Shown here piece by piece: positions 19,540 through 52,465 of a stretch of DNA of 64,000 nt (the first letter of the stretch is position 1; every line of letters begins with the position of its first letter). Position numbers and translations under genes: made by a program. This DNA comes from Reticulascus tulasneorum. Lineage: Eukaryota; Ascomycota; Sordariomycetes; Glomerellales; Reticulascaceae. The stretch lies in assembly GCA_001557505.1 (NCBI GenBank), contig LSAX01000006.1, positions 434,001 through 498,000 on the forward strand, in the 5' to 3' direction. The notes under the pieces were generated by a model that saw only the letters and a program-made list of their open reading frames with translations, was not told the origin of the DNA and searched no databases.

Positions 19540-19698
19540 TCAACGCGTAGGACCCGGAGGATCCGGAAGAGGAATATAGCCTAAGAAAATGGTTCCACGG
19601 GGCTCTTCGAGCTTAGTGTTTTGTTGAGTGCTTGGTTCAATGGGAAGGGCGAAGATGAGGGGAGCAAGAGCTGCCAGGACAGCAAACGTAGCCTTCAT
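19540..19698 (-). CDS. 52-residue secreted peptide, unknown
   Basis: An intronless frame from the ATG at 19698 to the TGA at 19540. The first 17 residues are a textbook signal peptide (MKATFAVLAALAPLIFA). The remaining 35 start LPIEPSTQQNTK and end with a Pro-rich segment containing GTIFLGYIPLPDPPGPTR. No cysteines and no dibasic (KR) sites are present, so it is not a typical Kex2-processed repeat precursor. A TTAAATA element lies about 135 bp upstream of the start. The strong signal peptide and the upstream element argue for a real gene despite its size. It could be a signalling peptide, an effector or a peptide precursor; I cannot choose. Confidence 0.6.
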   Translation of the reverse strand: MKATFAVLAALAPLIFALPIEPSTQQNTKLEEPRGTIFLGYIPLPDPPGPTR

Positions 19699-24118: not shown

Positions 24119-25903
24119 ATGGTTGATTCCATCAAAGAAAAAGACCTTCATCACGCAGGCGATGAGAAGGTCGTGGGAGGGACGACCCCGGAAGTGCTTC
24201 TGACGAAGGATGGCTTCAGAGTCCATCCGCAGCCCGTCGAAGGCGATGCGCTGGATCCGCTCAATTGGTCGGCCACGCAGAAGCATGTCATATTGGCCAT
24301 TGTGATGGCATTGTAAGCATCACACTCCAATCATAATATGTCCATCTGGCTAATGGGAATAGATATTTCATGTTCACCTACGTCACGACTACAACGGTTC
24401 CCTCCTTCCCCGAGCTTCAAGAGCAATACGGTCTCTCCCTCGAGGAGGTGAACTGGACAGTCGCGATACCGGCTCTGGGCCTCGCTGTCGGTCCTCTTCT
24501 CTGGTCGTCTCCTGCAGATATCATCGGCCGGCGAGTCATCTTCATCCTGGGCACGATCATGGCCTTTGCCGCCACAATTGGCGCGGCAAAGGCACCTTCG
24601 TACGGAGGGTATATGGCTGCGCGGTTTTTCCAAGGCCTCGGCGTGAGTCCGGCTGCGACTGTCGGTCTGGCCATCATCAATGATATGTTCTTCGAACACG
24701 AGCGTGGACAAAAGGTTGGGCTCTGGGTGCTGGCGATTGATCTCGGTCTGCTTTTTGGTCCTCTGATTGGTGGCTTCATCGACCTGGTCGACCACTTCTG
24801 GATCCAGTGGCTCACTGCCATCTTCTTCGCCGTCATTCTCCTCGCTGAGATTCTCTTCCTCCCCGAAACCCTCTACCCACGCGATTTCATGCTTTCGACG
24901 CATGGGACGAAATCACCACTTGCGCCAAACGGCGAGAAAGCGCCTGTTGTGGAGGCACCCGAAATCCGTCGAACAAAGAAGCTTACTTACGTCAATTTTA
25001 CTCCTGTTCCAGCTATGAAGCATCCCAAGGCCTGGGACTCGTTGATCAGATTTGGCAAACTGTTCAAATTTGCTGTCATCCCCATTGCCGTCCTCACCTT
25101 TTGCTTCGGCTGGTATTGGTGGGTGTTGTCGGTCATCACCATGATTCCCGTGGCGTACTTCCAGTACTCGCCTCAAACGCAAGGGTAAGGAAACCAATCT
25201 CCCAGTAGAGTGCTCTCTAATCAGATGTCTAGTCTTCTTTTCATTGGTTTGATTATCGGAACGTTGTTCTCTGAGATCTTTTGCTCTGGTCGTCTGAGCG
25301 ATTATCTGGTTGTGAAGCTCGCCAAGCGAAACGGTGGTGTCAAGGAGCCTGAGATGAGGCTGTGGCTTACATATCCTGCGGCGGTCCTCACTTCTGGTAC
25401 GTATGACCCTAACGCATTGTTGAAAGGACAAGAGTTGAAAGGATCCTAACCGGGAATAGTCGGCCTCATTATCTGGGGAGTCAGCATCGACAAGGGGTAT
25501 CATTGGATTGTCGGACAGGTGGCGTTCGTCCTCTGTAAGTCGCTTCTTCGCCCTTTCGAAGCAAGCTTCTAACATCTCCACAGTTGGTGCGGGAATTCAG
25601 ATGGGAAACACTGCAATCTGCGCTTACATCGTCGACTGCTATCCGCTCCAGAGCATGGCTATTGTCACCTTCTATGCCGTCTGCCTGAACCTGAGTGCGT
25701 TCATCGACCCCTTCTTCATTGCCCCTTGGGTAACGAATGTGGGGTACACATGGACCTTTGCAGGACATGCAATCATCACGACATTTTTCTGCATTCCTGC
25801 ATTGGCACTGCTCCACAAGTTCGGGGCCAGGATAAGGGCATCTTCCGGGGATCCGGATTGGGTAAACCCGGAATACGATCATGAGATCGTGGCTGCTTCA
25901 TAA
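24119..25903 (+). CDS. MFS transporter (DHA1-like)
   Basis: Five exons: 24119-24312, 24363-25184, 25233-25396, 25460-25534 and 25584-25903 (introns 48-63 bp), 524 residues. After a ~45-residue cytosolic start come two blocks of membrane helices. The loop after helix 2 has PADIIGRRVIFILGT, the MFS motif A equivalent, and AARFFQGLGVSPAATVG and LGLLFGPLIGGFI are also typical. A charged central loop spans roughly residues 240-290. The second half includes LLFIGLIIGTLFSEIFCSGRLSD and NTAICAYIVDCYPLQSM. It is probably a plasma-membrane drug/H+ antiporter or substrate importer. Its position behind the flavin monooxygenase suggests that it moves that enzyme's substrate or product. Confidence 0.9.
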
Positions 25904-33087: not shown

Positions 33088-34884
33088 TCACGAATGAGCT
33101 AGACTAAGAGTGACACTATTGAGCAATATCCCAAGATTGTCGGCCGCCGCAATCCAGCTGTCTAGTGTTTGTTCTTGTGCCTGGTCTCTGCTCGCTCCTT
33201 CAAACTCAATCATGTGGCCAATTGTACGGAGGCCAGCGTCTTTCGTATGGACAGAAGCTGCATATTCAGATGCCCACGCATCATTTGTTTTGGCTTCCCA
33301 TGGCCCTTTTGTCGAACAAAGCGGAAGATCGCGGTATTGCTCGACGATGCCACAGTTCATATTCGTAAAGACAGAGATGACACGACTTATGAGAAAGAAG
33401 ACTGTAGTAATCCTGGAATCAATGTGTTAAAAAAGGATATGCTGAAGTTTCCACAACTCTACCCACCTAATTCTTGATTCGGTATGAATCCAGCTTTCCC
33501 AGTCGTATGGCTGGCACCCTACGAAGCTACCGTCGTTCTGTGCTTTGAAATGTTGACAAAGGACCTAATTAGATGCTTAGCTTGGTACAATACGGGTAGA
33601 AAATTACTTGATTGATGAACTAACCTTGAATGCTATTAGGATCTGGACGTCCAGCTCATCAGGCTGGGTCACCCCATCTATGAGCCGCATAATAAGGTAC
33701 ATGACCTGCACTTGAATCGCTGCAAGGAGGCATTCCTCTGAGAAGCTGTTCATCTGCGTTGATTTTCCAATATAAGCAACAATAAGCACCATTGTATTTA
33801 CACAAATATATAGTCTCACCTCATCAAGGCATCTTTGACTCTCGCTCTTCACTGAGCTCCAAAGGAATGTCGCGGTTTCCGAAGTTCTAGACACGAACAA
33901 GTTTGCTATTATCATACAGTTAGTCAAAGGCCAGGGCAAACATGGTGTGCTCGGACGGTGCCAGTGCGGATGGATGAAGGGTGGGAACGTCTCCTTCCGC
34001 AGCATCATATATGGATATGCGCGTATGGATTGCATAATTAGACGCGCATTGTGTTGAGCAACTGGGTCTTTAGGTTGTAGACGAGCTAATGTGCCCATAA
34101 TCTGGTAGCTGGATGACGGATTTCCATTCGATGTGTGCATCCCCGAAAGAGCGGAGATGTGATTGTTGTCAACGATGCAGTATATACCAGAGCGCAATGC
34201 GTCTCTTTTCTGAAGAGGTAGGGAGGACGATGGAAGATATCTCTGATAGGAAGGCAAACTGATAGCGGTGGTTTGTGTTTCCGAGTTTGAGTCGAAGATG
34301 TCGTCACGACCGGAGATGCTAACTAGGACGCCATCGTCCATAGTGTCTGACCTGATGGAGTCGAGATTTGTCAGAAAGTTAGAATCTGCAATCTGAAATC
34401 GGCTGTCAATTCGCGATGCATCAAAGATGCCAGCCCTGTCGTTTGGCCCAGAATCAATCAGCGTGAAGGACGGCTTATCCATAAGGCCTGCAGGAATATT
34501 GGAGTCGTCCCCCCTGGAACCCCTCGGTATGCTAACCGGCTGGTCATAGCTGCAATGAAGCCCTCTTTGGGTACACCGCCGGCAGGTCTTCTCAAAGGTG
34601 CATTTGGTCTTTGCGGAGTTGCATGCCCGGCATGCTTTGTTTCGGATGCGTTGGCGATTCTGCGTCTTGCGGCAGTAGGAGATGTGCCGGCTGTATGAAG
34701 ACTCTGTAGAGCTCATCTGTCAGAACTCACCCATCTTACAACATGCAGGGTCAATATCTCGACTGGAAGTTCGATACGGACCTTGCACAAATGGTTTCTG
34801 GCAAATGGGGCAGCGGAGATCGGATGTCAGTGGCAGGCTGGACCCCGAGCTCTCCAATGTCATTGAATCTGTGTTTGCACTCAT
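33088..34884 (-). CDS. C2H2 + Zn2Cys6 transcription factor
   Basis: Five exons (34782-34884, 33820-34703, 33625-33753, 33467-33564, 33088-33412) give 512 residues. Joining exons 1 and 2 creates a finger C25-x2-C28-x12-H41-x3-C45, followed at once by a Zn2Cys6 cluster C59-x2-C62-x6-C69-x5-C75-x2-C78-x6-C85. This tandem arrangement is known from a fungal regulator class. The C-terminal part carries the family's typical ETATFLWSSVKSESQR, WESWIHTESRIRITTVFFLI, CSTKGPWEAKTNDAWASEY and a closing helix. Intron 1 needs a weak donor (GTCCGT) but has CTGAC before CTACAG. It may control the esterase/SDR/monooxygenase group, or the UstYa-like genes on its other side. Confidence 0.85.
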
Positions 34885-35330: not shown

Positions 35331-35694
35331 GACCTTCTAGGCCATTTTACTATCGACAGGCTCTGCCGGCAGAGTTCATTCATGGTGGCTGCGCGGAACA
35401 GCCGCTTACCATTGTACCTTCGATCAGCGCTACCGCAAATACAAATACAAATCAAACAAATCGAGTGTTGGCAGAGTAACTAATGTCTACACCCTAGTAA
35501 CCCTACGTTTTAGGATGTGATAACTTATTCCCATTGGCCAAGATCCCTGCTCTATACATGGGTGTAGTCTGGTTACTCTGCCAATACTCGATTTGTTTGA
35601 TTTGGATTTGTATTTGCGGCAGCGCTGCCTTCGATCACCGCGATCTATCAGCAAGTGGTCTAGCACGGACACTGCGCTAGCCGACTCGCCCCAG
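35331..35694 (-). pseudogene. Esterase gene fragment (degraded copy of 30686-30845)
   Basis: In the same orientation as the parent, this segment repeats the esterase region encoding the stretch around GESAGAVSVLDHLLIDRGD, here GESASAVSVLDHLLIDRGD. It has a 9-bp deletion and scattered substitutions, many of them C to T or G to A. It is interrupted by a 203-bp MITE. No start, no stop context and no flanking esterase sequence are present, so it is a dead partial duplication 4.8 kb from its source. Confidence 0.85.
35425..35627. mobile_element. hAT-like MITE with 56-bp inverted repeats and 8-bp target duplication
   Basis: 203 bp. The two ends (35425-35480 and 35572-35627) are inverted copies of each other with 53 of 56 matches, both starting CAGCGCT. 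The element is flanked by the direct repeat CCTTCGAT (35417-35424 and 35628-35635). An 8-bp target duplication and a terminal CAG fit the hAT superfamily. There is no transposase, and the interior partly continues the palindrome (CTACACCC...GGGTGTAG). It sits inside the esterase fragment, so it inserted after that duplication. Confidence 0.85.
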
Positions 35695-36109: not shown

Positions 36110-36930
36110 TCAGCCTGGGAACGCCTCTGTAGTGACATTTTTACCCTGATCTCGCACAGTCTTAATTAGAGAGCGGCTGTTTCCGCACTGCCGCAGGTCC
36201 TGTGTACCATCTATCGTCCATGACCTGCTGCCATTCCGTAAGAGTGACTCTCGCTCGATAGTGCCATCCGCCCAACAGAGAATAGTCTGCATGTTGTTAA
36301 ATTCAATGGTATCTTCAAAATGATCGGTTACAACCTGCCTTTCTCAGGTAGTCCATGCAATGTGGCCAGTGTGCGTTGTCATTTTGGTCCAACCCAGGAT
36401 CTTTACCATCGCGGGCCGTTTGTATAGCATGCCGAAGGCTAGAGAGGCAATGTAGTTGGTGGAACCTTGCGAATTATCAGTATGTTTATTTTCGCATGTT
36501 CAGAGCCGGTCTTCTTTGCAGCGGTTACTAACATGGAAAATACCCCTGGCAGTATTTCACCGTTGGAAGCATCATCTGGAAGGAGGATCACTGGAGATCT
36601 TCCATCTTGTGCCTCCCACAGTGAATCATACTTGTGATCTACCGACATTAAGGCAGTATTGTGACCATAGGCAGTCTTGAACACATTGTTGGCCTGGCAG
36701 CTCTTGCCGTTCGTCTTCAAGTGCAACTGGTTTAGGATTGCGGCCATGACGACCACCACGGCGGTGGTTGATAACGCGCAGTATACTAACAGACACGTCG
36801 TTGTAAAATTAAAGCTAAAATGCCCGGAGCGACGTGAAGCTATTAAAGAATAAAGCGAGGGAGATTCGTCTGGAATTAGATGCTCGTTAGACGAGTCCTC
36901 GGAGGAGCAAACGCGATCGTACTTGGCCAT
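36110..36930 (-). CDS. UstYa-like (DUF3328) oxidase
   Basis: Three exons, 36533-36930, 36339-36465 and 36110-36286, 233 residues. A cytosolic start is followed by one membrane helix (about residues 46-66, CLLVYCALSTTAVVVVMAAI) and a lumenal domain. The two HxxHC motifs that define the family are present: FHQLHC at 134-139, formed across intron 1, and HWPHC at 165-169, followed by MDYLRKTILCWAD. VDHKYDSLWEA before motif 1 is also typical. Intron 2 has no usable GT donor; a GC-AG intron (AAG/GCAGGT...ATGCAG) restores the frame. The C-terminal 'HxCRD' block is weak (TQDLRQCGN). Such proteins cyclise or oxidise fungal ribosomal peptides (ustiloxin, asperipin) or act on cyclic peptides. Confidence 0.85.
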
Positions 36931-38202
36931 GTTAATTGTCGACAGTTAGTAACTCAATCACGCAGGCCCGGGAATAAGAGAATTCAAAGAGACTGTAATT
37001 ACGAAAATCAGCGGCGAGCAGAAGGGGACGACCGATGGAGCTGAAGGAAATCCCTGGAGATGTCCACCCTCCTAACCCTCTCTAAAGGGTGGAAGACATG
37101 GCCGGTGTAGAAACAGCATGACCCCCAACATTAAACCACTTGACCAACAATTATCGTCATACCCACTACTGTGTGAAGATGACCGGCAATCCTTACGAGA
37201 TAGACAGGGTTATGTCAAAATTGCCACTGCACTGTGTTGAGCGGGCTATGGGAAGGACTTTTGTGCTGGAGTGCCCGCAGGTGACCGGGCATGATTAATG
37301 CATTGAGCATTCGTGTGAGAGATATAATTACTAGACTAGGATTACGCCCGTCACTGCGTGTACGCCAAGTATCAACCTATGATCCCTCGCTTCAAGCCAA
37401 GGAAATACCTAGTTGCTTGTCGATCACCAGAGGAGCGTTCGGTGAGCCGAGACTCCCGCAAACGGTATTTACCTGCTGCCAAGGTTAGCGAAACTCGGTG
37501 TGTAGTATTTACCTATTGCCAAGGTTCTTGGGCAGACATGGTGACTGGTCCAATTAATTGAGAGCACGTAGGTGCAGATGTCGACGACGTAGGTATATGT
37601 GTGAGTAGGTCAACTGAAGGATGCAATGCGAGGTGAGAGAACTTAATAGAACCTACAGTATGCCTACAGTATGGACCAGAAGTCGGACTTGATGCCTATT
37701 GCAGCATTGACCACCGGGTGCGCAAGCGCAGCTTTGGTTTTAGGAACATGAAATGTGCTGAGTTGTCTTATCTGTACTCTTGGTAGGCAGTAAGACCCAA
37801 CAACAGACCCTCGCTCAGGCCGGGAAGCTTGTGTGAAGGACTTTGTTTTATGACATATACTGGAGACGTGCATAGGAATATGTCTCAAAAGACCACATAA
37901 AGTGTCTGGCTAAGGGTAGTCTGAAATGCAGCTCGGGTGGAAAGTTGCGTATATTGAAGTAAAGAGACTTGGCAGTAGTCTGAGCTCTAGCACATTGTGT
38001 GATTACAAATGTAATCTGGAGTTCGTCTAAACTACCTACTTCCGCAGCTCAATTCACCCTTGACCTCAATCCTCAGAATCAGCAACAAACTCCACCAAGC
38101 ACCATATGGTCTCAACCATTCTTCATCCCCCAAATCAGAAAGAAAAGAAGGAGTCGGCGAATTCAAAGCAGCCACGCTTCGCTACTACTCGTAGATATTT
38201 CT
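36931..38202. other. Intergenic; promoter of UstYa-like gene 1
   Basis: 1.27 kb without a supported gene. Two imperfect copies of a 22-bp block (GTATTTACCT...GCCAAGGTT) occur at about 37465-37486 and 37505-37526. Confidence 0.4.
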
Positions 38203-38468
38203 CTACTTTTCGACAGCATTGTTATTGTTGTACTCTATACAGGTCAGCAGATTAGCTTGTTTCTCTGTATCCATTTGCATAACGTCAATTAAGGCACTAG
38301 AATCCTAGTCTTACCAAGGGCAGGGAGTGCTGGCAGGTCCTATTGCGTTGTTAATATACTATGGTCACTCCCAAGTGTTAGTGTTAGACGTACCGGCTGA
38401 GGAAGAGCGATGGCAACAGCCAGAGAAAGCAAGGTGACAAAAACGGAAATGATATGAGTGGTCTGCAT
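38203..38468 (-). CDS. Tiny multi-exon secreted peptide, candidate RiPP precursor
   Basis: Start ATG at 38468. Exon 1 (38394-38468) encodes a signal peptide, MQTTHIISVFVTLLSLAVA-IALPQP. Intron 1 (38340-38393) has donor GTACGT, branch TATTAAC and acceptor AATAG. Exon 2 (38315-38339) adds DLPALPAL. A second intron (38235-38314; donor GTAAGA, branch GCTGAC, acceptor TATAG) leads to exon 3 (38203-38234), ending in EYNNNNAVEK; total 43 residues. If intron 2 is retained, the product ends GKTRILVP at 38289 (41 residues). A TATTTAAA element lies ~70 bp upstream and the leader is pyrimidine-rich. It lies between two UstYa-like genes and is divergent from the second. Confidence 0.6.
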
Positions 38469-39069
38469 GATGGTGGGATTGGTTGGTTACTGAGATACGG
38501 TAATATGAAGATGAGAAGTTGAACTGTGGAAGTTTTTAAATAGTGTGATGGTTTACTGAACGCTCTTGGATTTACAAGATGTCACAAACTTGAGGGCAGA
38601 TGTCCGGACCTTTATAATATTCAAATCCAAGCTTCCGGTAGAGTATGAATATATGTAAATGATGGAATGCACACGGTTTGACGGAAATGAAACCCTGTGC
38701 CCATTTCGCCAAGCACCAAAAGTACAACATGCTAACCTCGTTGGCAAATCACGCTTCAAGAACGCCTTTTGCTCGCGGCCCATTCAGGCCGAATGTGCGG
38801 TTATTCAAAATGTATTAGTCGTTAGTGGGAAAGTGACATCTGACGTGCTACAGGGTTGGAGGAAGGATTCGAAGGATTCGAGGGATTCGAAGGATTAGTG
38901 CAGTGGGAAACAGTTCCGTGTTGATCTTGGTCGTGCAGAGATAGCTTGAGTTGAAGCTAGGTCCTAAAGACCGGAATCCCCATTCTTCATCGTTACAACC
39001 AAGAACGTCTTTGAAGGTCCCATTCTCATCCTCTCAAAAGATCGGCTATGATTCCCCTCAGCGTCCGTC
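38469..39069. promoter_or_regulatory. Shared promoter of peptide gene and UstYa-like gene 2
   Basis: 601 bp between divergent starts, with a TATTTAAA element for the peptide gene at about 38534-38541. A short array of about four 9-bp GGATTCGAA units lies at 38862-38896. Confidence 0.45.
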
Positions 39070-40080
39070 ATGAAGAATACTGAGCACAGCAGAGTTTCGA
39101 GCCTCCTAGAGTCGAGAGACTCAACATCCGATGGTGATGATGAGGAGGGACACACCTTACTCCCCGGGAAGACACCATTGAGAGTTTCACATCGATCAAC
39201 GAGAAATTTCATGACTATCCTATCGATAATTAACGCTATTGTCTTTGGTTTCTCATGCTTGTTTTTCGGAACGTGGTTTTATGACAACTACCTTGTTCTT
39301 AATGTGGAATTCCGGAGAATCTCAGCGTACAGTATAGCCCCGATTTCATAGCGGTTACTATCAGACTGGCTCTATTATGAGTATTAATGTTCAATAGCAC
39401 CCATTCATGAGCTTTTCCGCCCCGAGTGGCAGGTCAAGAAGATCAATGGTACTTTTTGGCCACCAGAGAGCCCATCTATTGCCCGACAAATCAACGATGA
39501 GACAGAAAGTCAATGGCAAGAATATGAAAAAAATAGGATCTTTCCCGTAACAGCAGCACAGCTTCGAGTAATGGGTGTGGACTCTTCCACGGCTGCCAAG
39601 CTGGATGACGAAGAATGGGGTCTGGGAGATGACGCTTTTGTCGCAGCTCTCGATGTATATCACCAACTTCATTGCTTGAATACCCTCCGACAGATAGCGT
39701 ATGGAGACCTCTATCCTGAGGTTTCTCGTGGTCGTGAGAAGCCGGCATGGAAATATCACGTCGACCACTGTGTAGACATACTTATGCAGGAGCTCCAGTG
39801 CAGTGGCAATCTCAACCTAGTCACCTACCACTGGGTCGAAAACCACGATAGACCCTTCCCGGATTTCAGCATTAACCGTCAGTGTATCGACTTTGAAGCT
39901 TTAACACGTTGGCGCCTGGAGAACACGCTTGACGTGGACAAGTTCAATAGTATTGCCAGAAAGCCGACCGGAGCCAAACAGCTGCGCGCCGCGGACGACT
40001 GGTACAAGTATAGAGCACCGAACTTGACGAATCCTAACCATCTGAACGGGGCCAACCCCGATGAAAAGTTCATCTTGTAA
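39070..40080 (+). CDS. UstYa-like (DUF3328) oxidase
   Basis: Two exons, 39070-39331 and 39398-40080 (intron 66 bp), 314 residues. An acidic cytosolic start (STSDGDDEEGHTLLPG) leads to a membrane helix at about 47-69 (FMTILSIINAIVFGFSCLFF). The lumenal part has NGTFWPPESPSIARQ, ALDVYHQLHCLNTLR (HQLHC at 176-180) and WKYHVDHCVDILMQEL (HVDHC at 208-212), the paired HxxHC signature of the ustiloxin-type oxidases. It is longer than usual, with ~60 extra C-terminal residues rich in Asn and basic residues. It is divergent from the small secreted peptide, and two further HxxHC genes follow on the same strand. Confidence 0.92.
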
Positions 40081-41002
40081 AGTGATTCTGGGGTGGATCT
40101 AGCTTGGACGGGCGAGGGCTTGGTGCGACCAAGACGAGGGAGTTCGGGGTATATCTCGCTAGAGATTTTGTGCGAAGCGTGGTAGAGGTCTTTTGTAAAT
40201 TTCATGACTTCAGTTATTCTGATACATTCATGGCCACTTAGCCTTTGGCCTATACCTCGACTTGCCTCCACAAATTGTTTCTTGATTTCAATATTTCAGG
40301 CTGCATATCAACAGCAAATAGATGCTTGTCTCCCAGTATATGGATTATTTTCAAATGCCGACGAATTCTTCGTATTCTGCATAATTCAGAAACTTGGGCT
40401 TCGAATATTCAAGCTTGCCAAGATTACTAGCAAACCTACAGAGATAAGATAGTGTACGATCTACGCCCGCCAGTGCCACGCTGCCTGCACCAGGGTCCGC
40501 GGTCATGCTCCGAGTACTTGCAACTGATATCAGTACTTGCCAAGCTCACTTTTGATCTTTTGTCCACAATCACATATGACGAGAGTTGTGAAGAATCCTT
40601 CAAAATGCTTATTTACGTCGTCTGACGCGGTCAGACATATATGTACACCGATAGCCGTGAAGAATCCTTCGCCATGCCTGATTACGCGGTCTGACAGCGT
40701 TGGACATATCAAGAAAATTGTTAATCCTTCCGAAGCGAGTCTATCAGGTGGCGTGGTGCTGTGGGTGTAATCATTAAGATCAAAAGCCGAAACCAGCTTA
40801 CATAGCGAGTGGGGGGACACTGGACTTGCCATACCAAATGTAGTCGGTAGCCACGTCTTAGATATCTTGACTGTTACTTCTCCTGTGTGTATTTGAATAC
40901 ATGATGCGGAGAATGAATTCCAGGTTCACACCTTTTGGTCGTGAACTTGCCCGATGCCCATACTTTTTCCTACATACGTAGCTTTTCGCTTGACCTCCTA
41001 TT
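40081..41002. other. Intergenic with a tandem repeat
   Basis: 922 bp. It contains two ~53-bp copies with 69-bp spacing (40588-40640 and 40657-40709). No supported gene. Confidence 0.45.
40588..40709. repeat. Two-copy direct repeat, 69-bp period
   Basis: Both copies start GTGAAGAATCCTTC and end in GACATAT, with diverged middles. Each contains GTCTGAC. They lie 0.3 kb upstream of the next HxxHC gene; a duplicated regulatory site is possible, but so is a mobile-element remnant. Confidence 0.55.
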
Positions 41003-41725
41003 ATGGCTCCCAAGCAAGCGACTTCACTCTCAGAACTGCAAAACACAATGCACGGCGGCCACAAAAAGCTTTACTCCGATGAAGAGGTTGACTTAGCAAT
41101 AGACCAAAGCCAAACCTCCCAGCTACACCTCCAGTCTCAAGCTCAAGGGATTCTAAGCCTTCGTGTTCTCGCCAGTTTCTTCCTTCTACTCGCAACGTCA
41201 AGCGTCTTCGTTGTCGTCCTTCGCAGCAATGGCAATCGCACCGAGTATCACAACTTGAGACCCATCAATGCCTCAGCAAATCCTGGTGAAAGCTTCTCGA
41301 AATGGATTGACTGTGGTCAAACAGCCTTGGAGGCTCGCGACCGGAACTGCATATTCGACCTTATGCTCTCAACATGGATTCATGAGTCCTGTTATGACGA
41401 CGAGATGATGAACAGGTATCTTCTAGAGGGAAACCATACTTACTTTTACGACGAAGGTATGGTGAACGAAATGCCTGAGGAGGAAGCTCGGCGTGGAGAG
41501 TATAAAACCATTTGGACGGACGGGGAGTTCCATTTACGGCACTGCGTCTATTTGATGGATATGCAACTACAGGCATACGTGACGGGACGGCCAATCGAGG
41601 TGTCAATATATAACTTTAAGCACACGCAGCATTGTGTTAACATGACGCTTTGGCATGATCGGGATGGAAAGAAGACAAAATTGCACGCATTGCACGGAAA
41701 ATGTGGCTTTCCAAAGACGAGATAG
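41003..41725 (+). CDS. UstYa-related HxxHC membrane protein
   Basis: Intronless, 240 residues. A cytosolic start is followed by one hydrophobic segment at about 50-72 (LASFFLLLATSSVFVVVL). The lumenal part has the pattern CG...EA...C-x-FD...W...CYDDE (residues 104-134), then two HxxHC motifs: HLRHC (177-181) and HTQHC (207-211). This is the less studied HxxHC branch common in ascomycete secondary-metabolite and accessory regions, related in motif layout to DUF3328/UstYa. No cofactor motif is visible beyond the His/Cys pairs. The neighbour at 42534 is a paralogue. Confidence 0.8.
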   Translation: MAPKQATSLSELQNTMHGGHKKLYSDEEVDLAIDQSQTSQLHLQSQAQGILSLRVLASFFLLLATSSVFVVVLRSNGNRTEYHNLRPINASANPGESFSKWIDCGQTALEARDRNCIFDLMLSTWIHESCYDDEMMNRYLLEGNHTYFYDEGMVNEMPEEEARRGEYKTIWTDGEFHLRHCVYLMDMQLQAYVTGRPIEVSIYNFKHTQHCVNMTLWHDRDGKKTKLHALHGKCGFPKTR

Positions 41726-42533
41726 CTGGCTTATCACGTAGTGACACTAAAGTCTAGAAACAGGATTACACAATTTAACAAAGACACCGTTGTTTTTCAA
41801 AATAGTGTATCATAGAGAATTTGTCACCTGGACTTTTGTGGATTCTGCTATGCCTTATGAAACGTAGACATGATAAAGGTTTCTTAGAAGCTACGTGAGG
41901 CACACGATTCGTGCAGTTAATTAGTGACACCATTTCGCAATTTTCTTCTTTAGATTTAGTAGCAGTGTCTGGCAGATACGATCACACTTGATCCTGTCAC
42001 TATGTTCCCCCACGCAACATGCTACACACCAAAAAGACTGGAAGCCATCGACGATTTTCTATGGCATAGTCTTTGCAACTTGCAGACAACGCCCGCAAAT
42101 GCCATGCCAAGTTCATTAAACCTGCAATCCGCAGTTGGCAAGATCTTCACTTCGGCACATAGCCACACTACTGGAGCCAGAAGAATGCCTGAGCTCCTTC
42201 GGCGGTCCTCCGGCAATCCTTTACCATGCACTGTGTGGGATTCTGCTGTTCACTCCATTTGGTACTTTGGTGTTGCACTCAAGATCCACAACTAGGCGGG
42301 AGCCAAGAGTGAAGCTTCATTTCTTTTGCCTAATTAGTTGACCTTGTGACATTTGGCCATACCTTGGTGCTTTCTTGCTCAGCAGTTCCGTAGTCCTGAG
42401 CACAACCCCATATTTTTTGGAACTTGGAGATAAGCATGTGCAGGAGTTCATATATACCTTGCCTTACATCTCCGCTGGGCAGGGAGACAGGCCCCATCTT
42501 TTTTCTTGTTCTCGATGTCCTAGATCGGCTAAA
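41726..42533. other. Intergenic between two HxxHC genes
   Basis: 808 bp. Some frames overlap here but none has motifs or a signal peptide. The frame of the next gene extends upstream, but the ATG at 42534 is the best start. Confidence 0.45.
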
Positions 42534-43232
42534 ATGGAAGAACAAAAATACAAATTACTTGACAATTATGACCAGTCCCTCGATTATGAGGTAGAGGACT
42601 CTCTTAACGGCGTTGAGGCCACTTATTCCTCACCAATCAATATTAGCAACAAGCTTCGGACTAAGAAGCGGTGGCGTACCACCCTTTACGTGATCACTGG
42701 CCTACTGTTCGCGGCTATTTTTTATCTGCTGGGTTTTTATACGCCAGTCTTGGGCTATGACCCATATCTTTTCAAACCATTCGGTTCGGGGCATTGTGGC
42801 AATTCTTCTGAGGAAGCGATAAAGAATGGTTGCATCATGGACTTCATACCAGGAGCGTGGGTGCCCCCGGACTGCTATGATCAGGACATCGAGAGAGAAT
42901 TCATGGAATATGGCGATTGGCACTGGTACGCTGATCCGTGGGGCAAGGAAGAGCTGTCAGAGGAATTTATGAGACGGACAGGTGGCCCCAGTCCTGTGTA
43001 TGTGTCCATGGCGTACCACGACGCGCATTGCGCCTTTACCTGGAGAAAGTTACACCGAGCAATTCTTCGAGGGACACCGATTGATAGCCAAATTGGTAAA
43101 TATCAGCATACCGAGCATTGTTCGGTAGCATTGTCGATAGCAAGAGATGCTGAGAAGTATCCGCAATGGAAGGCACCTGCTAGGTTCTTTAACGTATTCA
43201 CATCTTGCGAGCTGCCGCAGAAGTGCAAGTAG
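42534..43232 (+). CDS. UstYa-related HxxHC membrane protein, second copy
   Basis: Intronless, 232 residues from the ATG at 42534 (A at -3). A membrane helix at about 48-68 follows a KKRWR anchor (LYVITGLLFAAIFYLLGFY). The lumenal part repeats the architecture of its neighbour: CGNSSEEAIKNGCIMDFIP...W...CYDQDIE (88-120), then YHDAHCAFTWRKLHRAI (HDAHC at 162-166) and HTEHC (192-196). The WRKLHRA string is typical of this branch. Together with the genes at 36.1, 39.1 and 41.0 kb it makes four HxxHC proteins within 7.2 kb. Confidence 0.82.
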   Translation: MEEQKYKLLDNYDQSLDYEVEDSLNGVEATYSSPINISNKLRTKKRWRTTLYVITGLLFAAIFYLLGFYTPVLGYDPYLFKPFGSGHCGNSSEEAIKNGCIMDFIPGAWVPPDCYDQDIEREFMEYGDWHWYADPWGKEELSEEFMRRTGGPSPVYVSMAYHDAHCAFTWRKLHRAILRGTPIDSQIGKYQHTEHCSVALSIARDAEKYPQWKAPARFFNVFTSCELPQKCK

Positions 43233-48664: not shown

Positions 48665-51507
48665 CTAGGCCAACTCTATATAATCCAGAATAAACGGCCC
48701 CATAGCTACCGTATCATAGTCTTCGGGTTTTGTCGGATCCCCAAAAACCCTCAAGCCTCGAAGCAAAATTTCATATCGCCCTTCAGGCACCACAGTCCCA
48801 TCCGCTAGCATCCCGTTGAACGGAACTTCATAGAATCCACCAGTTTTATATTCTCTCGGATAACCATTAACGCTACCAGCTATATCGACGCCTAAAACCT
48901 TCGTTGTAGGCAGCTCGCTGCTGATATCAAGAGGTACAATGTCTGCGCGCATAATTGCTGGTCCCCAGTTGTAGGTCAAGTCGAAACTGGGATATCCAAT
49001 GTCATGGGGTGCCGATCCATCGACTTGTCCTGTCGGTCGTGGGATAAGAAATGTCGAATTGGGAGGAATTGGATCGTACGGGAAGTCTACCACTGTCCAG
49101 TTCCTGAATACGGTAAGTTCGTGGTCCACTATATTGACCGAATACAGGCTTCCCGCAGCTCCCACATAAGGAATTGAAAGGGAGTCACCGTTGGTCCCGT
49201 TGATGGCTACATAACCGCCGTATATGGGGATGTTGCTTCCATCAAGACCAGCTGGCGGCGTCGGCATGACTGTAATTATAGCAGAGCTACCCGCAGGTAC
49301 AACGACTGTGCCTGGTTCCTTGGTCTGACTGGTCGATAAAAAGCCGATCGTGGCCCAGGAGTCGACTGTAGGAGGGGGAAACTGGGTGCGACTCCCGCCG
49401 AGAAAGGTATACATGGTTGCTGCGTGGACATTGCTGAGTGTATACGTCACTTCTTCTGGGCTCGCGTTCTCTATACTAAAGCTGGTGCTCTTGCGAAAGT
49501 GATCTGTGTCATTGAAAGCAAGAGACGAGATGTTGAGGAGAGTCGTGGTGTGAAGGGCGTCGTATGCTTGGACAAGACCAGCACCCTGCTGTGCAGTCGG
49601 CGCCAGGATGCCAAAGGCTCTCCTACCGTTATGGAAGTTGTTTGGGTTTGCTGTGTTAGAAAGACGTCTCTCCAAAGTAGCTGGGTCATGGGTGCCTAAC
49701 GCTTCTGCGAGAAGAGCATAGATAGCCGCGACCAAAGGAGTTGCGAATGATGTCCCAGTTACCAAGGCATATGATTCGTTGACAGTGATTGAAAGTATAT
49801 CAGCGCCAGGTGCTGAGAACTGCGGCTTCAGGTCCATCTCTTGCGTTGGGCCCCAGGCAGTGCTGGTTACCAGGTAACCGCCGAGGCTGACGTTTGGCGC
49901 CTCGTGACGGAGTTTCTCTGCATGCGATGGCTCAGTGAATTCTAGGGTTACTTGGTGGCCATCTCGGAGAAGATCAAGCCATTCCTTTCCTTTGCTTGCT
50001 GCGACGTTTCCGAATCCGTGGACATCAGTATGATCCCCTGCCCAGACATCAAGTGGTTGCGTTCTGGATATAATTAGCATAGTAAGTGGTATGAGACTAT
50101 GACAGGTGTGAACTCACGATTCATCAGCGCTATATATCATCATATAATGCGCTCCCTTGTCGCCCACGAACCCAAGGCTCTCTAAAATGGTACAAGGCCC
50201 TCCAGCTGGAATGAGAACAACATACGGCGATAGATCCGGGGTGCCCGAGGGTAAGGGACTACAGCCATCTCCAATGGACTCGGAATTGCTCCAGATTGGC
50301 AAGGTAATATTTCCAAAAGGAGGCGAAGCGGCTACGGTGGGCGGCTGCCACCCGAAAGTCTTGCCGGTTGGTGAGTTATCGACGTGGTATGAGCCAGCGG
50401 CGTGGATATACGGCGTGATCGAATTTCTCACGGAAGCAATGCCGGTGCCTCCTTTGCCATTTCCGGGAGTTAAGCCGCTGAAAAGTCCCCCTGCAGCGCC
50501 ATGATTTCCATTGTTTCCCATGGCTACAATACATGGAACTCCAGCCTCAACGATTCGCTGGACAACAACCGCTGGGGCATCTTCAGGCCAGTTGGAAGAA
50601 GTGGTAATGGAGCAGCTGATGATGTGGCTGCCATCTTCTGCTGCTTGGTTGAAGGCGTCCATAAGAATGTCGGCGCGAATTAACTTTCCGCTGCAGGAAG
50701 TAACTCGATACATCCCGAGCTTGGCTCCCGGCGCCGCGCCTTCGAAACCGAATGAGTTGGATTGGCCGGCAATTATGCCCGCAATCTGTGTGCCATGACC
50801 GTTGCAGTTATTAAATGGGTCTGGGTCAGGATGAGTGACTCCTGGATTGTCGTCGTCGAAATCGTCTCCAATCAAATCCGCCCCATAGGACACTACGCAC
50901 CCTGGGCCCGAGCCGAAGCAGCCCCCCAGAGCCGAATGCCGATAATCAACGCCGGCGTCAATGATAGCAATTCGAATCCCTTTACCTGTGAATCCCTCAG
51001 CCTTCAGCTTATCAACTTGAGTCATCACATGTGGAGAGAAGGTATCTTGTGCGAATAGCTGCTGGCGCTTCTCGTTCGGTACAGTTCCAGTATTCTGTTT
51101 GCCAGTCCAATTTTCTTTCTCTGGGTGAGGAGATCGATAAAGTCGTAGAGGCCAGAGCCTTTTAACCATTGGGAGGTTGGAAATATAGGTTGCCACCGTG
51201 TGTGCATCAGAGGAGTTGCTCAACTCAAACGAGCAGCCTTTGAACAGCGAGTAGGTCATATTTAGGAGGGGAGTAAAGAGCACGTTTTCTGCGTCGAGTT
51301 TGGCATAGAAAGAGTCAACATCCTGAACCTTAGTTAGATTCAAAGAGCGACGGGAGTTTGGTTGGAAGTGAGGGTATTCACATGGGTGCCAGAAAATTCG
51401 ACGATATACGATCGAGGCAGGGTTTGGTCTTCGGTAATCGAGGCATGGGCAACGCTCATGAGACACAGCCCTAAGAAGGGTGCCAGAACAGCACGAACGA
51501 GCATCAT
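48665..51507 (-). CDS. Secreted subtilisin-like serine protease (S8) with PA-type insert
   Basis: Three exons, 51382-51507, 50118-51328 and 48665-50063 (introns 53 and 54 bp), 911 residues. The signal peptide is MMLVRAVLAPFLGLCLMSVAHA, then an I9-like propeptide (RSYIVEFSGTHVQDVDSFY). The catalytic triad is Asp166 (IRIAIIDAGVD), His220 (CNGHGTQIAGIIAG) and Ser551 (VTGTSFATPLVAAIYALL), with the oxyanion Asn in CIVAMGNNGNHG. The stretch between His and Ser is long and contains a PA-like insert (PYVVLIPAGGPC). A C-terminal ~300-residue beta-rich region follows, as in minor extracellular protease Vpr/C5a-peptidase-like fungal subtilases. It is expected to degrade extracellular protein. A role in peptide maturation for the neighbouring UstYa-like genes is possible but untested. 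Confidence 0.93.
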
Positions 51508-52465
51508 GAAAAGTTTACCAAGGAGAGACTAGGCAGTGTGTCGGTGACTATGGAGTGCCAACTTAAGAAAAAGGAGACTAAATTGCAAATCTCCCAGAGC
51601 TTGACCATTATATACATGGCATTGTGTTTTAATTAACCAGGACACCAGAGAAATTTTCTCAGTGCAACTTATGAATACAAGCTGCAATCCTCCGTATTGG
51701 TGATGACACACTGTCATCGTGGGAACCAAATAGGAGATCAAAATGTAGGACGGCGGTGGTAGTAGCTCTCAGGCAGCCTTATTTTTAATCATGTATTTTG
51801 TGGAACATGCGACGGAATGTCACAGCTTTTGTCCCGTAATGCCCCTTGCCGCATTTTCAGTTCTTTGGGAAGGAGTTCAAGCTAACTAGGTAAGGCAGCC
51901 AGTCATAACATCTCACATCAGCTGGCTGGTCAAAAGTCGAATGACCCCACAGGCGTAGTTACTTTTCTTGCATAATGATTTGACCCTGGACATATGTTGA
52001 GTGGCCAAGCCATGGATCACATCACTCGACCACGCGACCTGGATTCCCAGAAATCCTTGTCAGGGAATGATTCCACAGAGCCCGCTCCGTTCGTGATGGG
52101 ACTTTTTCTTTTTTTGTTCACCCGTGCCTGCAGCGAAAGTTGGTGCTATTTGGTCATCACGCACAGGACTAGTCCAATTATTCGCAAGTCAATAGACTGG
52201 ACTGTCATTAACACATGCTAATTAAGTTGGGATGAATCTATTGAGCTAATCGCTAGTTCGTATAATGCGCGTTTCGTAGTCAGCGTAGAATTTCAAGAAA
52301 CCGAAAGACTGAAAACGCAACATCGACAAGACACCTAGTTCGAAAGTGAAAGCTGAGAAGTCGCCGTCTACTGATGGAACTCTCGATCTTTTGGTTCCCC
52401 ATGCTTTGATCATCAGGCTCTCGCCCTAGAATCGTTCTCGACTCAGAAGGATTGGTAAGCCGAGG
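51508..52465. other. Intergenic, subtilase promoter
   Basis: 958 bp without a supported gene. Confidence 0.5.

What the first reader, a model, noticed from the sequence alone, without database searches (positions are those of the whole stretch)
36110..43232. Candidate fungal RiPP cluster: four HxxHC proteins around a tiny secreted peptide gene
Seen: two UstYa-type and two UstYa-related membrane proteins within 7.2 kb, each with paired HxxHC motifs, and between the first two a 41-43-residue signal-peptide gene sharing a promoter with an oxidase. Known: ustiloxin, asperipin and phomopsin are made from secreted ribosomal precursors modified by UstYa oxidases. Unlike those precursors, this one has no KR-separated repeats, so it would be a single-core variant.
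Basis: partly seen in the sequence, partly recalled or inferred. Interest (0 to 1): 0.87.

Follow-up and report, generated by a model that had tools for sequence, protein, structure and literature searches.

The report
Possible single-core fungal peptide gene cluster
A fungal genome carries a compact group of four copper-oxidase-like membrane proteins around a tiny secreted-peptide gene that looks like a one-unit relative of known fungal ring-peptide clusters, but nothing yet shows that the peptide is made or modified.

Summary
The anatomy is real. Two proteins (36110-36930 minus, 39070-40080 plus) are UstYa/DUF3328 members. Two more (41003-41725, 42534-43232, plus) form a separate HxxHC family ("family B") below Pfam's cut-off. 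All four have a hydrophobic N-terminal segment and paired HxxHC motifs. Between them a short frame (start 38468, minus) has the window's highest signal-peptide score (5 of 500 shuffles as good). Its predicted first intron falls where predicted introns fall in two repeat-type precursors beside the closest paralogues of the 39070 gene.

New: in this genome family B lies near UstYa at 4 of 6 loci (one weak). At two (C16, C12) a small non-repeat secreted peptide again lies between them; the C16 one resembles a KR-repeat precursor in its signal exon. The 39070 gene and family B are listed on the same contigs in two named fungi and three unnamed contigs.

Not shown: conservation of the peptide (no homologue found), its C-terminal end (six models score alike), expression, product. 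It has no Kex2 site or repeat. Best reading: a dikaritin-like, single-unit RiPP cluster with an extra HxxHC family; new variant of a known kind; 0.55 that the peptide is the substrate.

The parts
36110..36930 (-). Gene 1, UstYa/DUF3328 protein, 233 aa, exons 36930-36533, 36465-36339, 36286-36110; second intron read as GC-AG
   Evidence: Pfam UstYa 2.9e-16 for the spliced model, 4.3e-8 for exon 2 alone; exon model and HQLHC/HWPHC. Conservation with the other genes not tested.
38203..38468 (-). Candidate precursor peptide gene: exon 1 38468-38394 (25 codons, signal peptide), predicted intron from 38393; 3' end uncertain (41, 43 or 53 aa among six near-equal models; 42 aa if unspliced)
   Evidence: Highest signal-peptide score in window, 5 of 500 shuffles as good; spliced models; intron place and phase as in the L029 and L031 precursors. 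No homologue in the protein database, no paralogue in own genome.
38469..39069 (.). Shared upstream region of the peptide gene and gene 2, with a 9-bp repeat GAAGGATTC at 38862-38896
   Evidence: Divergent gene order from sequence; repeat. Promoter function not tested.
39070..40080 (+). Gene 2, UstYa/DUF3328 protein, 314 aa, exons 39070-39331 and 39398-40080
   Evidence: Pfam UstYa 1.2e-40; homologues, the best full-length one at 85%; AlphaFold model of the second exon, pLDDT 76; exon model
41003..41725 (+). Gene 3, family B HxxHC membrane protein, 240 aa, single exon
   Evidence: No Pfam or NCBIfam family; 20 of 37 family B relatives are nearest to it, at 44-89%; HLRHC/HTQHC
42534..43232 (+). 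Gene 4, family B HxxHC membrane protein, 232 aa, single exon
   Evidence: 17 of 37 family B relatives are nearest to it, at 45-86%; 11 invariant residues in 39 aligned sequences including H162, H165, C166, H195, C196; AlphaFold model pLDDT 78

Best explanation
The stretch is a compact RiPP (ribosomally made, modified peptide) cluster of the dikaritin type with a precursor that carries one unit instead of Kex2-separated repeats. The peptide enters the ER through its signal peptide. In the lumen of the secretory pathway the membrane-anchored HxxHC proteins, acting as binuclear copper oxidases as shown elsewhere for the DUF3328 protein CctR, oxidise or cross-link side chains of the short tail; the tail of the 43- and 53-aa models holds one Tyr, that of the 53-aa model also one Cys. 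Genes 3 and 4 are a second HxxHC family that works beside the UstYa proteins. Shown here: genes, motifs, topology, gene linkage, the peptide frame and its parallels in this genome. Inferred: splicing, secretion, copper use, substrate identity, chemistry and product.
For: Gene 2's two closest paralogues in this genome (57.6% over 229 aa at L029; 49-52% over two pieces at L031) each lie divergent to a secreted precursor: L029 with KR/KK-separated repeats, L031 with two repeats. The window peptide is divergent to gene 2 in the same way, and its predicted intron falls after codon 25 in phase 0, against codons 23 (L029) and 25 (L031), also phase 0. At two other family B + UstYa loci (C16 = L023, C12 = L024) a small secreted-peptide frame lies between them; the L023 one was the only match outside its own locus when the L034 KR-repeat precursor was searched over the whole genome (E 2.7e-5; the match covers the signal-peptide exon). 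Each HxxHC sits near the start of a helix in both models, fitting the helix placement reported for CctR (PMC12435403). No condensation, adenylation or ketosynthase domain among 39 of the 108 window frames of 110 aa or more.
Against: No homologue of the peptide in the protein database, and DNA of the syntenic contigs could not be reached, so conservation, the key test, is open. None of the six best-scoring peptide models has a dibasic Kex2 site. Chance gives a signal-peptide frame as good in about 1% of shuffles, and the L023 and L031 peptides are weaker alone (47 and 37 of 500). The L034-L023 similarity is mostly signal peptide, where convergence is possible. Five of the six family B contigs longer than 100 kb (Phialocephala, Mollisia, Seiridium, one Rhypophila, Naviculisporaceae) have no gene 2 relative in the 78-row list, so linkage is not universal, or the capped search missed it. 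UstYa proteins also act on non-ribosomal peptides (cyclochlorotine, PMC12435403). Family B also occurs at two loci with no UstYa match nearby (L026, L027).
Confidence: 0.55

Rival explanations
1. Genes 2-4 are a conserved oxidase module whose substrate is coded elsewhere (a non-ribosomal peptide, or another gene's precursor); the peptide frame is chance or unrelated.
For: Genes 2, 3 and 4 have relatives in other fungi, several on one contig, the peptide is not found outside this genome; DUF3328 proteins act on non-ribosomal cyclochlorotine (PMC12435403); family B at L026 and L027 has no UstYa match within the fetched stretch.
Against: No condensation, adenylation or ketosynthase domain among the 39 scanned frames (69 of 108 not scanned); peptide signal unlikely by chance; the same predicted intron place as two repeat-type precursors; parallel layout at L023 and L024.
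Confidence: 0.28
2. The small gene makes a secreted peptide that is not modified (signal or effector-like peptide) and sits there by coincidence or shares only regulation.
For: No repeat, no KR site; PMC7329392 reports that 78% of Kex2-processed repeat proteins have no DUF3328 gene within 15 genes (passages).
Against: Lies between two UstYa genes and divergent to one; a similar layout recurs at two other loci.
Confidence: 0.12
3. A decaying cluster: the repeat part of an older precursor was lost and gene 1 is no longer correctly spliced.
For: Gene 1 needs a GC-AG intron to stay open in my model; the peptide tail is short and has no Kex2 site.
Against: Genes 2, 3 and 4 are open with both motifs kept and have relatives at up to 85%, 80% (89% over 146 aa) and 86% identity.
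Confidence: 0.05

Closest known systems
Dikaritin RiPP clusters (ustiloxin, asperipin-2a, phomopsin, victorin)
   Same: UstYa/DUF3328 oxidases with paired HxxHC beside a small secreted-peptide gene; the same genome holds KR-repeat precursors beside UstYa genes
   Different: No repeated core, no KR site, no tyrosinase or methyltransferase among the scanned frames; two extra HxxHC proteins outside Pfam UstYa. Sequences of the published clusters were not compared.
CctR, CctO, CctP2 of cyclochlorotine (DUF3328; PMC12435403)
   Same: HxxHC(x)nHxxHC on two helices after an N-terminal membrane helix, as described for CctR
   Different: Their pathway starts from a non-ribosomal peptide; no NRPS domain was found in the frames scanned here
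Lichen DUF3328 clans R1/R2 (PMC12048977)
   Same: UstYa-type genes without a repeat precursor; the authors mention a single core peptide as one possibility (passage)
   Different: The passages seen name no candidate precursor; here there is one, with parallels in the same genome
Plant BURP-domain peptide cyclases
   Same: Four-histidine binuclear copper site, by the analogy drawn in PMC12435403
   Different: No sequence relation tested or claimed here

Membership tests
Dikaritin RiPP cluster | DUF3328/UstYa protein with two HxxHC motifs (class-defining enzyme, per PMC12048977) | tested here: met
   Genes 1 and 2 over the Pfam cut-off with both motifs
Dikaritin RiPP cluster | Precursor with N-terminal signal peptide near the DUF3328 gene | tested here: inconclusive
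   Signal-peptide-like frame between genes 1 and 2, 5 of 500 shuffles as good; home-made score, not SignalP; no transcript evidence
Dikaritin RiPP cluster | Repeated core units separated by Kex2 (KR) sites | tested here: not met
   No repeat array of that kind in the window; no dibasic site in the six best peptide models
Dikaritin RiPP cluster | Tyrosinase, methyltransferase, peptidase or transporter in the cluster (older definition) | tested here: not met
   No tyrosinase or methyltransferase among 39 scanned of 108 frames; an MFS transporter frame lies at 24337-25185 and subtilase frames at 48668-51514, not next to genes 1-4. PMC12048977 notes that functional clusters may lack some of these.
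Dikaritin RiPP cluster | Oxidatively cyclised peptide product | not testable with these tools
   Needs LC-MS of cultures and deletion strains
UstYa family (PF11807), for genes 3 and 4 | Score over the Pfam cut-off | tested here: not met
   No UstYa match for genes 3 and 4; 2 of 39 family members match, best 0.0054
UstYa family (PF11807), for genes 3 and 4 | One N-terminal membrane helix and HxxHC(x)nHxxHC | tested here: met
   H162, H165, C166, H195, C196 invariant in 39 sequences, H192 nearly so; membrane helix by hydrophobicity and model only
UstYa family (PF11807), for genes 3 and 4 | Detectable homology of the whole domain | tested here: inconclusive
   Profile comparison aligns both motifs on both motifs, E 0.0016 but probability 16%; no solved relative found

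The most novel reading that the evidence does not exclude
Family B marks a separate lineage of dikaritin-like clusters that use short single-unit precursors without Kex2 repeats, modified by paired UstYa and family B copper oxidases; repeat-based genome mining and the Pfam UstYa model would miss both the precursor and half of the enzymes.
Probability: 0.35. Interest if true: 0.72.

Novelty: new variant of a known kind. Interest (0 to 1): 0.52.

Why it matters
Surveys such as PMC7329392 start from Kex2-separated repeats, and others from Pfam UstYa genes. If single-unit precursors with family B oxidases are real, an uncounted set of clusters exists in several ascomycete groups, and a second HxxHC family offers new candidate peptide oxidases. 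The lichen study (PMC12048977) left open whether DUF3328 clusters without a repeat precursor have a single core; this locus makes that question testable.

Tried and rejected
A hidden repeat precursor in the window: rejected. An NRPS/PKS partner: no condensation, adenylation or ketosynthase domain among 39 scanned frames; two short-chain dehydrogenase frames match the KR model as well, as such proteins do; 69 of the 108 frames of 110 aa or more were not scanned (count), and genes split into small exons could be missed. Peptide homologues: none in the protein database (2 candidates shared words, none E <= 10) and no paralogue in the own genome. Structural relatives in the PDB: none meaningful; the two models were compared only by where the motifs fall on helices. 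Rfam and tRNA scans empty. Genes 3 and 4 as plain UstYa members: rejected at Pfam level.

Rows dropped: alignment A2 holds 34 of the 37 relatives (P0017, P0036, P0037 left out) and the family B copies of the window, L024, L026 and L027, not that of L023; alignment A3 holds gene 2's second exon and 27 of the 78 relatives.

Papers: passages seen in PMC12048977, PMC7329392 and PMC7099791; parts 1 and 2 of 3 of PMC12435403. Searches listed no paper that I recognised as showing a single-unit dikaritin precursor or naming family B; most listed papers were not opened. Published PhomY, VicY and UstYb sequences were not compared.
Full report
What is there. The window lies in an unnamed fungal genome of 42.8 Mb in 35 contigs (C32:434001-498000). 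In 7.1 kb there are four genes for proteins with paired HxxHC motifs. Gene 1 (36930-36110, minus, 233 aa as modelled) and gene 2 (39070-40080, plus, 314 aa) match Pfam UstYa at 2.9e-16 and 1.2e-40; gene 1's second exon matches alone at 4.3e-8. Gene 3 (41003-41725) and gene 4 (42534-43232) are single-exon, related to each other at 29%, and match no Pfam or NCBIfam model at the cut-off. I call them family B. Each of the four has a strongly hydrophobic segment starting near residue 48-57 and two HxxHC motifs 30 to 32 residues apart. Gene 1 stays open in my model only if its second intron is of the rare GC-AG kind, so its model is the least certain.

Family B. A profile search found 37 relatives. 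They fall into two clean groups: 20 nearest to gene 3 (44-89% identity) and 17 nearest to gene 4 (45-86%). Named sources include Phialocephala subalpina, Mollisia scopiformis, Xylariales sp. AK1849, Seiridium cupressi and Rhypophila. In 39 aligned sequences (34 of the 37 relatives and five copies of this genome) 11 positions are invariant: C88, G89, A95, C100, W109, C114, H162, H165, C166, H195, C196; H192 is nearly so. Profile comparison with 28 UstYa sequences (gene 2 and 27 of its 78 relatives) puts both motifs on both motifs (E 0.0016, probability 16%), and 2 of 39 members touch the Pfam UstYa model (best 0.0054). Models of gene 4 (pLDDT 78) and of gene 2's second exon (pLDDT 76) each place the two motifs near the start of two helices. 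This fits the arrangement reported for the DUF3328 protein CctR, a membrane-bound binuclear copper enzyme (PMC12435403, parts 1 and 2 of 3 read). I take family B as a distant sister of UstYa; that is inference with moderate support. No solved structure resembles either model.

Linkage. In this genome family B matches lie at 6 loci. At 4 of the 6 a UstYa match lies within about 7 kb: the window, C16, C12 and C2, the last with a weak UstYa match (4.4e-4) and a family B fragment. At the two C17 loci no UstYa match is near. Outside this genome, gene 2 and family B relatives are listed on contigs of identical length: 14,223 and 9,199 bp with all three genes; 4,074,841 (Xylariales sp. AK1849), 18,454 (Rhypophila decipiens) and 3,471 bp with genes 2 and 3; 10,340 bp with genes 3 and 4 (types). 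Against universal linkage: of the six family B contigs longer than 100 kb, only that of Xylariales sp. AK1849 also appears among the 78 gene 2 relatives. That search scored 200 candidates only and has length limits, so misses are possible. Whether gene 1 or the peptide is on these contigs could not be tested.

The peptide. The frame from 38468 (minus) has the highest signal-peptide score in the window under a simple score of my own, 3.72; the next frame, at 35558, has 3.66. 3 of 400 and 5 of 500 dinucleotide shuffles of the intergenic stretch do as well. The predicted first intron starts at 38393, after codon 25, in phase 0. Beyond it six spliced models score within 0.3 of each other, among them those of 41, 43 and 53 aa; the unspliced frame gives 42 aa. 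None of the six has a repeat or a dibasic site. No homologue was found among 5.8 billion proteins and no paralogue in this genome. Spliced peptides may be missed by gene prediction in metagenomes, so this absence is weak evidence, but it counts against the claim.

Parallels in the same genome. Of the twenty 10-kb stretches fetched around UstYa and family B places, at least five hold a repeat-type secreted precursor: L029, L033, L034 and L036 with KR or KK sites, and L031 with two repeats and no KR. Gene 2's closest paralogues are the UstYa genes at L029 (57.6%) and L031 (49-52%). Their precursors are divergent to the oxidase and have a predicted phase-0 intron after codon 23 or 25, like the window's. 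At two family B loci a small peptide frame without repeats lies between UstYa and family B: L024 (57 aa, 10 of 500 shuffles as good) and L023 (69 aa as I splice it, 47 of 500). The L034 repeat precursor, searched over the whole genome, found outside its own locus only the L023 peptide (46% over 39 residues, E 2.7e-5). The match covers the signal-peptide exon, so kinship of the two is likely, not proven. The window's own peptide shows no such sequence match.

How it would work. The peptide is carried into the ER; genes 1-4, anchored with their HxxHC domain in the lumen, oxidise or cross-link its short tail with copper and O2; the tail is released by signal peptidase alone or with a peptidase not in the cluster. 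Every chemical step is inferred from CctR and from dikaritin work. Genes 3 and 4 might pair with genes 1 and 2 or act in sequence; nothing here decides that.

What is known. PMC12048977 takes DUF3328 as the class-defining dikaritin enzyme and two HxxHC motifs as its mark, and mentions a single core peptide as one possibility for clusters with no repeat (passages). PMC7329392 found DUF3328 genes near 22% of repeat precursors (passages); its survey starts from repeats, so peptides like this one would not be in it. Six searches listed nothing that I recognised as a proven single-unit dikaritin precursor or a name for family B; I did not open most of those papers and did not compare published PhomY, VicY or UstYb proteins.

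Verdict. I rate it a new variant of a known kind, interest 0.52.

Noticed in passing
L034:2253-2900 (G000:C35, about 966.7 kb): A dikaritin-like precursor in which each repeat (DKRYLQYKTAPGIPPPPKG) seems to be its own exon: about 125-bp genomic repeats made of a coding unit and a predicted intron.
   Followed up: partly
L031:6282-6584: Two-repeat secreted precursor (unit with VYNPxDPVYSGKELRIYE) without KR sites, divergent to a UstYa gene 49-52% identical to gene 2.
   Followed up: partly
L029:6474-6923, L033:5842-6336, L036:1930-2304: Three classical KR/KK-repeat precursors beside UstYa genes in the same genome.
   Followed up: partly
L026:4384-5061 and L027:4429-5199: Family B genes with no UstYa match within the fetched stretch; the frames next to them were not scanned for domains.
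   Followed up: no
window 19540-19698 (minus): Another small secreted-peptide frame of 52 aa ending in a Pro-rich tail, far from the UstYa genes, no paralogue in the genome.
   Followed up: partly
window 35425-35627: Inverted repeat with 56-nt arms, 95% complementary, 91 nt apart, between a Zn-cluster regulator frame and gene 1; perhaps a small mobile element.
   Followed up: no
L041 (G000:C5, 28.5-kb contig): Carries a frame also found in L024 and a UstYa fragment: perhaps a second copy or an assembly duplicate of that locus.
   Followed up: no
L037:1665-1994: Secreted Tyr-rich repeat protein (YGDYGDY units) about 2.2 kb from a UstYa match.
   Followed up: no
window 33607-34719 (minus): Zn2Cys6 regulator-like frame next to gene 1, possible cluster regulator.
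   Followed up: no
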